Below are positions 2,440 through 8,286 of a stretch of 8,286 nucleotides of DNA, in pieces (positions within the stretch are counted from its first letter, which is position 1; each line of letters starts with the position of its first letter). Origin of the DNA: Treponema sp. (lineage in GTDB: Bacteria; Spirochaetota; Spirochaetia; Treponematales; Breznakiellaceae); the NCBI GenBank assembly GCA_031264475.1, contig JAISEA010000062.1, positions 1 through 8,286 on the forward strand, read 5' to 3'. The position numbers were made by a program, and so were the translations under genes. The notes under the pieces were generated by a model. The model was not told where the DNA came from and did not search any database. It saw only the letters and a program-made list of their open reading frames with translations.

Positions 2440-4149
2440 TTATCGCCCCCTTGAAGTCTCAAGCAAAATCTTGTCATTGGGTTCGATAGCCATGCCCGGG
2501 GCGAGTTCCACCGTCTTGGCGGTAAACACGCGATTGGCGCCAGAAATCGTTACCGTTCCCACATATTCGTTGCCTGTTCTGAAGATGAACGCCTTTTGAT
2601 TCTCAAATGAAAGCCCGAACAACGGATCAATGTAGACAAGAATATCCGTTCTGTTCATCGGATCGATGACATATCCTGCCGCGCCGTTTTTTTCTGTTAC
2701 CGTGCGAAAATATCGGCGATCTCGGACAAGCAGGTTATCCGCGACATCCAGATTGTGGGAAAGCGTCGTATTCTCGCGGGTAAGATTGTCCGTTTCTTGA
2801 ATGAGCATCTGTTTCTCACGGGTAAGACTGCTCGTTTCTTGAATGAGCATCTGTTTCTCGTGGGTAAGATTGTCTATTTCTTGAGTAAGCTTCTGTTTCT
2901 CGGCGAATAGCGTTTCTTTCTCGGCAGTCAACGCCGCTAAATAAGCGGACAGAGAGGCATTATCTACTTTGGCGGCTTCGGTTTCCGCAGAAATATCAGC
3001 GATCAAAGCCTCTAATTCAGCGATTTGCGTCTCAAGCGTCTGCTTTTGATTGGACATATTATCGGAAAGCTCTTGAATCTCACTGCCCGCAGACCGTACC
3101 GTTTCATAGAAGAGCGCATCCATAGCTTCAATATAAGAAGGCGTGTTATTTTTCCACGGGATAGCGAGCAATTCTGAAGAGAGGGCATTCATATCGTGGT
3201 AAGAAGCGTTCATTTCAGCCAAAATTTCCATTTTGCCATTGGGCAAAGGAGCCGCTGTATCTGGAATATTTGTGTTTGCTATGATGGCTTCACTCTGTTC
3301 GTTGTTCCATAGCGGGTCAAGCGCCGCGATTTCCGCCTTGTATTTTGATGACACCGTGTCAACGCTTTCCAACTGCGTCTGCAAGCCGACCTTTTGAGAC
3401 TCGGAGAGCACGGAGAGGAGATTCGCTATGGTATCCTCGTACTGGGCGCGTATCGTTTCTTTCTCATGCTCGAAACGCAGGTACTCGGCATTGGCGGTTT
3501 TTCGCTGTTCCTCTGCCTGTTCAATACGAGTCTTGTCAAAAGACGCAATCTGTATCCGGTATTCTTCAAGTTTTGCGTTCAATACACCCAGCGACTCTGC
3601 ATACTTCGCCCGTACTTGAGTCACGTCCTCGTTAAACTTCTCGTTCACTTGGGCGATGCGGATAGTTTCCTCGCCGCGCGGCAGGGAAAGAGAATGGATG
3701 GTCGCTCGCTCGGCTTCGACGTTTGCTTCAAGCTTGCTTAACTCCACAGACAGTTCGCCTTCAAGCGCGGATTTTTCCGCAAGCGTGCTTTGATAAGCGA
3801 ATTCAATGCGGCTTGCCATATCAAGAAGATTCTTGAGGTTCAAGTCGTCAAAGGTATTGATGCTCTCTGGCACATTCCGCGTCCGCGTATTGATAACTCT
3901 GGTCGTAATGAATAACCCGCATACAGTCGCAACAATGACCCCTAGTATGATGAGAATGACGAACCACGAGCGGTTATTCTTCGCCTTAGCGAATTCCGTT
4001 TCTAGGTTGTAGACGTCCGGCGCGTCGCTCTTGAGAGTCTTCATGGCTTCTTCACGGAAGAAGAGCCGCGTCTCTTTATCCATGAAATCAAAACCTGACG
4101 TTGTTGTCAGTGCGGTTACTTGCTTGTCATTGTCCATATTCCATTCCAT
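2440..4149 (-). CDS. Single-pass membrane coiled-coil protein with C-terminal beta-rich domain
   Basis: A 569-residue protein of unknown function. Residues 1-60 are polar and probably cytoplasmic, 61-82 form one transmembrane segment, and the remainder should be extracytoplasmic. Two long Glu/Lys/Ala-rich coiled-coil regions span about 115-275 and 350-470. They are separated by a less regular linker containing Pro (about 278-345). Residues 421-462 are three near-identical 14-residue units (LTQEIDNLTHEKQM and variants). The last 90 residues are beta-rich with Gly turns (GYVIDPMNRTDILVYIDP, then EYVGTVTISG, then APGMAIEPNDKILL). They suggest an SH3-like or MreC-like barrel, but this is by eye only. 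The gene overlaps the end of the cyclase gene by 34 bp. Two starts are possible, ATG at 4149 and ATG at 4137. GAAGG abuts the first and lies 12 bases before the second, so the start is unsettled. It may be a structural or signalling partner of the cyclase. Confidence 0.75.
   Translation of the reverse strand: MEWNMDNDKQVTALTTTSGFDFMDKETRLFFREEAMKTLKSDAPDVYNLETEFAKAKNNRSWFVILIILGVIVATVCGLFITTRVINTRTRNVPESINTFDDLNLKNLLDMASRIEFAYQSTLAEKSALEGELSVELSKLEANVEAERATIHSLSLPRGEETIRIAQVNEKFNEDVTQVRAKYAESLGVLNAKLEEYRIQIASFDKTRIEQAEEQRKTANAEYLRFEHEKETIRAQYEDTIANLLSVLSESQKVGLQTQLESVDTVSSKYKAEIAALDPLWNNEQSEAIIANTNIPDTAAPLPNGKMEILAEMNASYHDMNALSSELLAIPWKNNTPSYIEAMDALFYETVRSAGSEIQELSDNMSNQKQTLETQIAELEALIADISAETEAAKVDNASLSAYLAALTAEKETLFAEKQKLTQEIDNLTHEKQMLIQETSSLTREKQMLIQETDNLTRENTTLSHNLDVADNLLVRDRRYFRTVTEKNGAAGYVIDPMNRTDILVYIDPLFGLSFENQKAFIFRTGNEYVGTVTISGANRVFTAKTVELAPGMAIEPNDKILLETSRGR
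2772..2897 (-). repeat. Three 42-bp tandem repeats inside the coiled-coil gene
   Basis: Units start at 2772, 2814 and 2856 with exact 42-bp spacing and only a few base differences. The shared segments include GGTAAGA and TTTCTTGA (plus strand). Each unit encodes 14 residues, two heptads, so copy number can change without breaking the frame or the coiled-coil register. The next bases (from 2898) start with the same TCTCG but diverge quickly, which suggests an older decayed copy. Confidence 0.85.
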
Positions 4150-5910: not shown

Positions 5911-7335
5911 TTATTTTTCCACGCGGCAATTTTCCAGCTCTTGCAGTCTGTGTTTATCAACCTTGATGTGGAGATTCTTCTCCTGTGTCGGGATGACGAG
6001 TCCTTTGGGACCGTTTTTCGCCCGGTGGAGGAATTTCACCGGCGTATAAAAGAGATCGGCTTCCTCGTTAGATCGCCCTTTTGAATAAAAAACCGCGAGA
6101 TTGCCCGCGTCCAAGAGGATATTGAGCGGATACGACTTGCCCTTCCGCTGCTTTATGAACACATAGGAGCCGGCGAAGTCCCGCACGTGCAACCAAAGGT
6201 CTCCGCCTTTGACGTAATGGCGCAGAAGGTCGTCGTTTTCCTTGGCGTTCCGTCCCACGATCAACAGCCAATCCTCCTTGCGGAAGGAAAGTCCGGGGCG
6301 TTTTTGGTCTTTTCTCGCGGTCTGCGCCGAAACCCCTGCGGGTCTGTCGCCAGATTGTAGTTTTTTCTGCAAGACGAGGGGATTCTCTTCTGCCAGCAGA
6401 GAGGCGAGAGTCGTCTCAAGGCGGGCGAGTTCTTCCTTGCTCTTGGTTATTTCCGCCTGTACATCCGCAAGCCCATTTTTCGCCTTGCGAAACCGCTCGT
6501 AATAGCGCGCGGCTTGCGCCTGTGGAGCGGTCTTTGGGTCAAGCGCGATGGTCGTCCGCTCGCCGGTGTAGAAGTTATCCGCCTCAAGCCAGACGTCTCC
6601 GAGGTGAATAGACGCAATATGGGCAAGAATGACGTCTCCATATTGCCTGAAGCGTTCCGCGTTGGAAAAATCGGCGGCTTTTTCCTCTAGTTTCTCAATT
6701 GAGGCGATGAGTCTATTCATTTTCCCTTCAAAAGTCTTCGTCGCCTGTTCTCGGAGCGCGGACAGGGACAGAACGCCGCCTTGTTCCGCGTAAAACCGAT
6801 CTATTCTTTCGTTGAAACTACCTTGTCCGTCCAATTCACGCACTGCGTAATCTTTGGGCGAAGGTTTTGCCTCCGCGTCTTCCGGGTGGTAGAACCCGCC
6901 GGTTGTCTCGCCGCGTTTTGGTAGTCTCCGCATGGCGTCCAGCACCTTGCCGTCCGCGTCTGTTACGACCACGTTAGCCGCGTTTGACCAGAGGCGTATG
7001 TAGAGAAACAGGCGTTCATCCGCTTTCTTGACCGTGAGTCGCACGATGCGGTTATCCTGTAACTGAACCGCGGACTCGATCCACCCGTTGACCGCGCGGG
7101 AGTTGAGGAATTCCGCGAATCGCAGGGGGTGATCCCGCTTGGGAACGGAAGAGAAGGTTTCGTGCAAACGGCACGCGCCCGCGGTCAGCACAACGAGCAG
7201 ATTCTTGCTCCTTCCGTTGCCGTGGAGCCTGAGGCAAAGCACATCAAACGCTATTTGCACGGCTTTTTGTATCTGGCACCCGACCAGATCCAATTCTTCG
7301 AGTATAAGATCGATTTCTTTCCAATTCAACGACAT
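5911..7335 (-). CDS. NFACT family protein (Rqc2/RqcH-like, ribosome quality control), short form
   Basis: Canonical members bind stalled 50S subunits carrying peptidyl-tRNA and recruit tRNA to add a C-terminal alanine tail; some are called fibronectin-binding proteins. This 474-residue copy has an NFACT-N-like region at about 1-165, a central coiled coil at about 200-320, and a clear NFACT-R domain at about 350-465. NFACT-R shows VGRNAKENDDLLRHYV (360-375), DLWLHVRDFAGSYVFIK (379-395) and YTPVKFLHRAKNGPKGLVI (430-448). Canonical bacterial proteins are around 560-580 residues. Here the GFYHPEDAE segment (147-155) runs almost directly into FNERIDRFYAEQGG (174-187), so the helix-hairpin-helix region normally between them appears missing. 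The Asp of the Asp-Arg pair needed in B. subtilis RqcH aligns with Asn95 (QDNRIV). The ATG start has AGGA seven bases upstream (7343-7346). Family is secure; full Rqc activity is uncertain. Confidence 0.85.
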   Translation of the reverse strand: MSLNWKEIDLILEELDLVGCQIQKAVQIAFDVLCLRLHGNGRSKNLLVVLTAGACRLHETFSSVPKRDHPLRFAEFLNSRAVNGWIESAVQLQDNRIVRLTVKKADERLFLYIRLWSNAANVVVTDADGKVLDAMRRLPKRGETTGGFYHPEDAEAKPSPKDYAVRELDGQGSFNERIDRFYAEQGGVLSLSALREQATKTFEGKMNRLIASIEKLEEKAADFSNAERFRQYGDVILAHIASIHLGDVWLEADNFYTGERTTIALDPKTAPQAQAARYYERFRKAKNGLADVQAEITKSKEELARLETTLASLLAEENPLVLQKKLQSGDRPAGVSAQTARKDQKRPGLSFRKEDWLLIVGRNAKENDDLLRHYVKGGDLWLHVRDFAGSYVFIKQRKGKSYPLNILLDAGNLAVFYSKGRSNEEADLFYTPVKFLHRAKNGPKGLVIPTQEKNLHIKVDKHRLQELENCRVEK

Positions 7336-7421
7336 ATCTTTATCCTAGCGCGGTAGCGGGAAAAGATCAAGTATTTTGTATTCACGTTACGCGATTATTC
7401 GTTTGGAACGTTTATCCTGTT

Positions 7422-7427
7422 ATTATA
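7422..7427 (-). promoter_or_regulatory. Candidate -10 element for the NFACT gene
   Basis: A consensus TATAAT lies on the minus strand about 87 bases before the NFACT start. No good TTGACA match sits 16-18 bases further upstream. That position falls right at the edge of the 21-bp repeat array, so an activator bound to the array could replace a missing -35. The -10 match is exact, but the promoter assignment is tentative. Confidence 0.35.
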
Positions 7428-7446
7428 CGTTGATCAGTCCTCGTTT

Positions 7447-7644
7447 GCGTCATCGGGGTACGTACCCGCGACTCTGGGGTACGTACCCGTAACTCTGGGG
7501 TACGTACCCGAACACTTGGGGTACGCACCCGCGTCATCAGGGTACGTACCCGCAACTTCGGGGTACGCACCCGCGTCATCGGGGTACATACCCGCAACTC
7601 TAGGGTACGTACCCGCAACTTCGGGGTACGTACCCGCGTCATCA
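7447..7644. repeat. Array of nine 21-bp repeats, each with a 12-bp palindromic core GGGTACGTACCC
   Basis: Cores begin at 7456, 7477, 7498, 7519, 7540, 7561, 7582, 7603 and 7624, exactly 21 bp apart. Six are the perfect palindrome GGGTACGTACCC. Those at 7519 and 7561 read GGGTACGCACCC, and the one at 7582 reads GGGTACATACCC, so changes fall only at core positions 7 and 8. The 9-base spacers fall mainly into two types: GCGTCATC(G/A), and variants of G(C)AACT(T/C)(C/T)(G/A). The first type also flags both outer edges of the array. A decayed tenth core (GAGGTA) may follow at 7645. The function is unknown. A protein-binding array, a structured transcript or a mobile palindromic repeat are all compatible. 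Confidence 0.95.
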
Positions 7645-7671
7645 GAGGTATTTGGAGAGATATGGAATTCG

Positions 7672-7689
7672 GCGGATTTACTAATCCGC
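7672..7689 (-). terminator. Stem-loop after hisH, weak terminator or mRNA-end hairpin
   Basis: GCGGATT (7672-7678) pairs with AATCCGC (7683-7689) around a 4-base loop, 12 bases beyond the hisH stop. No T-tract follows in the direction of transcription, so intrinsic termination is not assured; it could protect the 3' end of the message instead. Confidence 0.4.
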
Positions 7690-7701
7690 TTAATAGAAGG
7701 A

Positions 7702-8286
7702 TTAGAAGTTATTCAACCAATTATTCAGAAGTTGCAAGCCGACAGCGCCGGATTTTTCCGGGTGGAACTGTACCGCGCAGAGAGCGCCTCGTTCCACAGC
7801 CGCGCAGAATCGCACCGAATAGTCAGCCGTCGCCGCGACAACGCTTTTATCCGCCGGATCCGCGTAGAACGAATGTATATAGTAGAAAAATGGGGGCGCT
7901 TCTGTGGATAAGCCTGAAAAGAGCCGGGTTCCTTCGCGGAATAGGGTGCTGTTCCAGCCGATTTGGGGGACCTTGCGGCAGGTGAACTTCTTCACCGCGC
8001 CGGGGATTATGGATAAACCGCGAATGATTTCGCCGTTGACGGGCGGCGCCTCTTCCGACGATTCAAACAGTAGTTGCAAGCCGATGCAGATACCCAGAAA
8101 CGGACGCTCCAGCTTGATCCATTCACGGACAGCCGCGGTGTAGCCTGTCTCTTCAAGCGCGGTCATCGCCGTGCCAAAATGCCCGTCTCCGGGGAAGACG
8201 ATTTTATCATAACGCCGTATTTCCTCCGCTCCGGGCACAAATTCCGCCTGCGCCCCAAGCCGCGACAGCGCATTCATCACGGACCC
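7702..8286 (-). CDS. hisH: Imidazole glycerol phosphate synthase glutaminase subunit HisH (5' end cut by window)
   Basis: HisH hydrolyses glutamine and passes the ammonia to HisF, which makes imidazole glycerol phosphate and AICAR in histidine biosynthesis; it is cytoplasmic. The visible part has the class I glutamine amidotransferase triad: the nucleophile Cys in GICIGLQLLF (about 8086-8088), and His and Glu in QFHPEKSG (about 7759-7767). It also has FPGDGHFGTAM (oxyanion region), KVPQIGWN and YYIHSFYA, all typical of HisH. An ATG at 8280 is not the true start. The frame stays open to the edge, and the last codons read G-S-M-M-N-A-L, matching the family's 'GNLxSVxxAL', so roughly 10-15 N-terminal residues lie beyond the window. 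The rest is intact to the stop at 7702. Confidence 0.93.
   Translation of the reverse strand, partial: GSVMNALSRLGAQAEFVPGAEEIRRYDKIVFPGDGHFGTAMTALEETGYTAAVREWIKLERPFLGICIGLQLLFESSEEAPPVNGEIIRGLSIIPGAVKKFTCRKVPQIGWNSTLFREGTRLFSGLSTEAPPFFYYIHSFYADPADKSVVAATADYSVRFCAAVERGALCAVQFHPEKSGAVGLQLLNNWLNNF

What the first reader, a model, noticed from the sequence alone, without database searches (positions are those of the whole stretch)
7447..7650. Helically phased array of nine palindromic 12-bp sites between hisH and the NFACT gene
Nine copies of GGGTACGTACCC (three with one changed base) recur at exactly 21 bp, two turns of B-DNA, so every palindrome faces the same side of the helix. No indel disturbs the spacing. 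A dyad-symmetric core with constant phase is what cooperative binding of a dimeric protein would look like, as in iteron or operator arrays. I recognise no known element with this core. It could be a regulatory, nucleoid-organising or replication/segregation-type site, or a clade-specific repeat family.
Basis: partly seen in the sequence, partly recalled or inferred. Interest (0 to 1): 0.75.

Follow-up and report, generated by a model that had tools for sequence, protein, structure and literature searches.

The report
Structure-keeping 21-bp satellite arrays in Treponema
The nine evenly spaced palindromes are real, but they look like one of dozens of mostly unrelated non-coding tandem repeats in this spirochaete lineage that share an exact 21-bp unit and often a mirror-symmetric core, rather than a special switch for the two neighbouring genes.

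Summary
Observation confirmed: nine GGGTACGTACCC-type palindromes at 7456-7635, spacing exactly 21 bp, between hisH and an NFACT gene. The operator reading is not supported. As an array this core was found in one other place: the same locus of a near sister, G001 (Treponema sp. Gx481_bin55), again nine copies. No exact dispersed site exists there, and three more distant congeners lack the array. But G001 is full of other arrays: in 317 kb, 42 of 100 tandem arrays have period 21 (none 20, one 22), with mostly unrelated sequences (29 families in 38 arrays), mostly intergenic. Variation shows no codon rhythm but a conserved stretch plus a variable one, and dyads are enriched (15 of 44 arrays against 5.8% of controls). 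In two loci both arms changed together. So period and, in part, structure are kept, not sequence. This fits the published 'constant repeat size, variable sequence' 20-21-nt repeats of bacteria (PMC8161180), whose function is unknown. I read it as a fast-turning satellite, with dyad conservation as the main new aspect.

The parts
7456..7635 (.). nine 12-bp palindromic cores (GGGTACGTACCC, three with one change) at exactly 21 bp, separated by 9-bp variable spacers
7447..7643 (.). whole tandem array including partial end spacers (TRF periods 21/42/63)
7702..8286 (-). hisH (5' end outside the window); its stop lies 58 bp from the array
5911..7335 (-). NFACT-domain gene; its start lies 111 bp from the array
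7672..7689 (.). inverted repeat GCGGATT-TACT-AATCCGC between hisH and the array (no terminator-like site detected)
   Evidence: sequence; one search found 0 terminator-like sites

Best explanation
The array is a non-coding intergenic satellite of the 'constant period, variable sequence' class (21 bp = two turns of B-DNA), present in the window and its sister G001 and absent at that locus in three more distant congeners. Each unit is a conserved 12-bp core plus a variable 9-bp spacer. Shown: exact period, many mostly unrelated arrays of the same period in G001, patchy presence, units in a different order in the two sisters at constant period, no codon rhythm in variation, enriched dyad symmetry. 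Inferred: arrays grow and shrink by whole-unit slippage or unequal exchange; the period is set by the helix (two turns), either in the duplication step or by selection; the dyad is kept by hairpin-templated (template-switch) correction and/or because the fold itself is useful. No sequence-specific regulator of hisH or NFACT is needed.
For: Period: in 317 kb of G001, 42 of 100 merged tandem arrays have period 21, 0 have 20, 1 has 22, 7 have 23. Short intergenic repeats outside the arrays also peak at distance 21 (13 against a mean of 2.2 per distance; distance 14 has 14), though these may be decayed arrays. Unrelated sequences: 38 arrays (37 of G001 plus the window's) fall into 29 families at >=15/21 matches; 12 pairs reach that level against 0.4 in shuffles. 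Non-coding: codon-rhythm power 0.066 against 0.100 expected over 41 arrays, while the one-block component has z = 6.2; 38 of 44 G001 arrays are mostly outside genes called by a rough caller. Lineage-specific: G010 and G012 have hisH and NFACT 2-3 bp apart, G011 about 90 bp apart without an array; two other G001 arrays have no counterpart within 1.5 kb on that side of the orthologous gene in 7 of 7 and 11 of 11 congener loci (synteny of the second neighbour not checked). Turnover: window and G001 are 96.6% identical over a 6152-bp stretch on one side, spacers are in a different order, nine units in both. Core constraint: arms 0/144 changes, centre 7/72, spacers 46/162. Dyads: score >=6 in 15 of 44 arrays (11 of 37 in G001 alone) against 5.8% of 3480 control 21-mers, p = 1e-8 and 5e-6. 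Paired arm changes within single loci: L089 and L090.
Against: Dyads are not universal: 29 of 44 arrays stay below score 6, and only 11 of 54 are significant at 0.05 on their own shuffles (20%). Of 55 arrays tested for paired changes 9 had p <= 0.05, two of them (L061, L088) unreliable because of indels. In the window array no arm position varies, so it offers no compensatory change. Invariant arms against a variable centre and spacers could also mean selection for a bound protein. No single-copy ancestor was recognised in congener loci, so the birth mechanism is inferred. More open frames were seen than in a simple simulation (119 against 95.8). Units of one array are related, so the Fisher p-values overstate independence.
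Confidence: 0.6

Rival explanations
1. Structural binding platform: an abundant nucleoid-type protein polymerises on DNA and needs sites every two turns, with loose sequence demands; arrays of any sequence with that spacing serve it.
For: Exact 21-bp period over mostly unrelated sequences; conserved stretch plus variable stretch per unit; a protein that polymerises on DNA was proposed for this repeat class by Subirana and Messeguer (PMC8161180, parts 1-4 of 5 read).
Against: A second class with period 23, not two turns, coexists; arrays are few or unseen in the sampled parts of close congeners and of single-contig relatives (1 array of period 21 in 480 kb of four genomes), so such cells do not need them; no protein identified.
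Confidence: 0.17
2. RNA element: the array is transcribed with hisH or the NFACT leader and folds into a long hairpin (each palindrome can pair with itself or any other unit), affecting processing, stability or RNA-RNA contacts.
For: Minus-strand RNA of 7447-7645 folds at -119.3 kcal/mol, z = -9.0 against dinucleotide shuffles; variation of the core is confined to two central positions, which would lie in the loop of a small hairpin.
Against: A tandem palindrome is expected to fold this way whatever its role; G001 arrays occur in tandem, divergent and convergent gaps like the background; no Rfam match at gathering score; many arrays lack clear dyads.
Confidence: 0.1
4. Coding repeat of seven amino acids (frames such as DDAGTYP or GYVPASS are open in both sisters).
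For: Period divisible by three; open frames in both window and G001; 119 open frames in 42 arrays against 95.8 in simulation.
Against: Variation has less 3-bp rhythm than chance; core changes fall on first and second codon positions of these two frames; a 23-bp class exists; the simulation ignores shared ancestry of units; in the simulation too 36.7 of 42 arrays keep an open frame.
Confidence: 0.03

Closest known systems
Constant-size, variable-sequence 20-21-nt tandem repeats of bacteria (Subirana and Messeguer 2021, PMC8161180; parts 1-4 of 5 read)
   Same: Unit of 20-21 nt, several families of different sequence in one genome, in general non-coding, species-specific, function unknown.
   Different: Here a spirochaete family; period 21 with none at 20 in the G001 sample; 13 arrays of period 21 per 100 kb there; dyad-symmetric cores enriched and sometimes changing in both arms. 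[quoted passage not shown] The founding 2020 paper was not held.
Tandem repeats of Borg elements (PMC9879509, passages seen)
   Same: Arise independently, fast evolving, partly intergenic, virtually absent from host genomes.
   Different: Borg units are described as perfect copies with A enrichment and varied length, about half inside ORFs; here units are diverged, length fixed, mostly intergenic.
REP/BIME palindromic repeats (recalled; only search listings seen)
   Same: Intergenic palindromes, sometimes clustered.
   Different: REPs are dispersed copies of one sequence family; here most arrays have their own sequence and a strict head-to-tail 21-bp period.
Iteron or operator arrays (recalled)
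   Same: Repeated sites in helical phase.
   Different: No replication, partition or regulator gene beside it in the window; no exact dispersed sites in G001; not kept in three congeners.

Membership tests
constant-size variable-sequence 20-21-nt tandem repeats | one fixed unit length across arrays of a genome | tested here: met
   42 of 100 arrays at 21 in the G001 sample; 20 and 22: 0 and 1; a smaller class at 23 (7)
constant-size variable-sequence 20-21-nt tandem repeats | unrelated unit sequences, several families per genome | tested here: met
   38 arrays, 29 families at >=15/21
[quoted passage not shown]
   38 of 44 mostly outside called genes (rough gene caller); no codon rhythm
constant-size variable-sequence 20-21-nt tandem repeats | short characteristic word shared by most arrays of a species | not tested
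   only pairwise unit similarity was measured
operator array of a sequence-specific regulator | same site at other targets, or conserved at the locus | tested here: not met
   shared only with the near sister
operator array of a sequence-specific regulator | specific binding protein | not testable with these tools
   needs pull-down or binding assay
iterons / centromere-like sites | linked replication or partition genes | tested here: not met
   direct flanks are hisH and NFACT; only the window's genes were looked at
REP elements | one dispersed palindromic family | tested here: not met
   in G001 exact cores lie at one locus only
CRISPR array | near-identical repeats with unique spacers of about 30 nt (recalled) | tested here: not met
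   9-bp spacers, partly repeated

The most novel reading that the evidence does not exclude
Satellites in which period and dyad symmetry, not sequence, are inherited: units are copied at two helical turns, and mutations in one arm are written into the other by hairpin-templated synthesis, so arrays drift through sequence space while keeping 21 bp and a palindrome, and multiply in some spirochaete lineages.
Probability: 0.3. Interest if true: 0.72.

Novelty: new member of a known kind. Interest (0 to 1): 0.5.

Why it matters
Bacterial repeats of fixed length but free sequence are an open puzzle with no agreed mechanism. This lineage offers a dense natural experiment: dozens of arrays of mostly unrelated sequence, relatives with and without them, and loci where both arms of the palindrome changed together. 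It could separate a helix-length constraint from a sequence constraint and makes the template-switch idea testable. It also warns that palindromic, helically phased arrays need not be operators.

Tried and rejected
Rfam scan: no match at gathering score. Promoter/terminator scan of 7300-7760: two promoter-like sites on the minus strand against 0.6 expected, no terminator-like site. Search for a single-copy ancestor of three array units in congener loci: best matches 13-15 of 21; one of six comparisons reached 0.025 and is taken as chance. A third congener comparison gave no clear orthologues (best 29% identity) and was dropped. Flanking sequence as a dispersed element: the 76 bp next to the array match G001 at the same locus (92%), plus 21 bases inside the array and a 14-base chance-level match. 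The generic search with GGG-N6-CCC three times hit 26 of 117 genomes, but the pattern read backwards hit 12 of 117; I did not look at those control matches, and several outgroup genomes had only 1-3 hits. I use only to show that other palindromes occur at 21 bp, as its listed sequences do. One Streptomyces hit (L013) looks like a proline-rich coding repeat, read by eye. Paired-change statistics for L061 and L088 were set aside because indels shift the register; for L089 and L098 two neighbouring sub-arrays were pooled, and the centre was chosen by best pairing. Literature searches; none listed a paper on tandem repeats of termite-gut treponemes, and two papers that treat Breznakiellaceae have no hit for 'tandem repeat' in the main text (word search only). 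Of PMC6749651 I read part 1 and a word search, of PMC4060949 passages. The 2020 J Bacteriol paper that founded the class was not held, so whether it covers spirochaetes is unknown to me.

Full report
Check. They lie between hisH (TIGR01855) and an NFACT-domain gene, both on the minus strand.

Relatives. The window's own assembly is not held. The nearest genome, G001 (57% complete), has the same array with nine units at the same locus. Its contig length equals that of JAISCD010000050.1, Treponema sp. Gx481_bin55, so I take them as one genome. Its origin from termite gut and its family (Breznakiellaceae) are recollection and inference, not read from a record. Of 117 relatives only G001 holds two adjacent units with up to 3 mismatches. 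A scan of genome contigs found one more stretch besides the G001 record, in Streptomyces. In G010 and G012 hisH and NFACT are 2-3 bp apart; in G011 about 90 bp without an array.

The array inside. Read in the direction of the genes, the 18 units of the two sisters are GGGT-NN-GTACCC with 9-bp spacers. Changes: arms (positions 1-4, 9-12) 0 of 144, centre 7 of 72 (all at positions 5 and 6), spacers 46 of 162; arms against centre p = 0.0004, core against spacer p = 2e-12, units not being independent. DNA on one side is 96.6% identical over 6152 bp, yet the spacers are in a different order: the pair TGATGACGC-CAAGTGTTC is at units 6-7 in the window and 2-3 in G001. So units were probably gained and lost while period and, in these two, copy number stayed the same.

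The genome around it. In 317 kb of G001 (21 stretches of a 1.8-Mb genome) Tandem Repeats Finder with merged overlaps gives 100 arrays: 42 with period 21, none with 20, one with 22, seven with 23; nine more have 42, 63 or 84. The 42 arrays make up 2.7% of the sample and 8.9% of its non-genic bases. 38 arrays, the window's included, fall into 29 sequence families. Of the 20 contigs fetched from base 1, 11 begin in a repeat: seven of period 21, 42 or 63, two of 23, one of 18 and one a run of C, so array density and length are probably underestimates. Short intergenic repeats outside the arrays peak at distance 21 (13 against a mean of 2.2) and 14 (14); in genes distance 21 has 5 against 1.8. These may be decayed arrays.

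Distribution. In one search, with up to 20 kb per genome (G001 more; three genomes 2-11 kb), 7 of 25 family members and 0 of 16 genomes of other families of the order had a 21-bp array; the contigs of G015, G023, G037 and G067 were already known to hold one. A second set gave 2 of 17 genomes, many stretches being short. Four single-contig relatives (G038, G039, G044, G049) had one such array in 480 kb. So the expansion is patchy and strong in G001. At two other array loci of G001 no array lies within 1.5 kb on that side of the orthologous gene in 7 of 7 and 11 of 11 congener loci; one congener (G007) has an unrelated 21-bp array on the other side of the gene.

Coding or not. Variation along the unit has less 3-bp rhythm than chance (0.066 against 0.100, 41 arrays) and a strong single-block component (z = 6.2): one conserved stretch and one variable stretch per unit. 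With a rough gene caller 38 of 44 arrays are mostly intergenic; of the 30 with genes on both sides 23 lie in tandem, 4 in divergent and 3 in convergent gaps, against 66, 19 and 8 of 93 background gaps of 100 bp or more. Open frames are more frequent than in a simple simulation (119 against 95.8), which I put down to shared ancestry of units.

Symmetry. The best dyad of the unit averages 4.56 over 54 arrays against 3.66 +- 0.12 in shuffles. Against 3480 non-array intergenic 21-mers of G001, 15 of 44 arrays reach score 6 against 5.8%; in G001 alone 11 of 37. So most arrays show no convincing dyad. In L089 (11286-11594) two sub-arrays in one register have arms TGAATCA/TGATTCA-like and TAGATCA/TGATCTA, two pairs changed on both sides; in L090 (2171-2549) TGTCT/AGACA becomes AGTCT/AGACT. 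Over 55 arrays 9 had more paired changes than shuffles at p <= 0.05, two of them unreliable. Template switching can write such paired changes (PMC8794818, PMC7202029; search listing and start of abstract only). Because each core is self-complementary the whole array can fold back on itself (RNA -119.3 kcal/mol, z -9.0; DNA z -6.9).

Known kind. Subirana and Messeguer describe bacterial tandem repeats of constant size (20-21 or 52 nt) and variable sequence, species-specific, function unknown; they note that 21 nt is two turns and suggest a polymerising protein, the nucleoid or small RNAs (PMC8161180, parts 1-4 of 5 read). Its text has no hit for palindromes or treponemes, though it mentions short words and 'their reverse' within 52-nt repeats. 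The present arrays meet the features of that class that I tested.

Verdict. A real, non-random feature, but most likely not a site-specific operator: a lineage-specific member of a known, unexplained class of satellites, with enriched and in places covarying dyads as the new aspect.

Noticed in passing
L083:11958-12051, L089:2138-2300, L093:18008-18606, L099:5-245, L053:3776-3925, L056:3327-3400, L111:18651-18871: A second class of tandem arrays with period exactly 23 bp, some with CCTAGAC- or CCCTAG-like words and inverted repeats; not a multiple of a helical turn or codon.
   Followed up: partly
L097:1-248, L083:13107-14132, L085:995-1348, L094:303-409: GGTGTCTGACACC-like palindromes recur in several places of G001, also in arrays of period 18, 25 or about 52.
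   Followed up: no
L014:6736-6770, L098:2650-2775, L101:9001-9065, L086:14560-14733: Heptamer-type arrays (CTACCTG-, AGCAGTG-, TAGCAGG-like; periods 7, 14, 21, 63), some next to 21-bp arrays.
   Followed up: no
window 2771-2902: 42-bp repeats inside the ORF 2440-4149 (minus strand), length a multiple of three, so probably coding; G001 has the same (L014:12243-12374).
   Followed up: partly
L029:44-1066 (G007): About 48 units of 21 bp over 1023 bp with 0% indels by TRF; one minus-strand frame is open throughout.
   Followed up: partly
L043:363-597 (G020): Alternating 21-bp units whose palindromes differ in sequence and in centre (CGGAATTCCG and TAGGACGTCCTA).
   Followed up: partly
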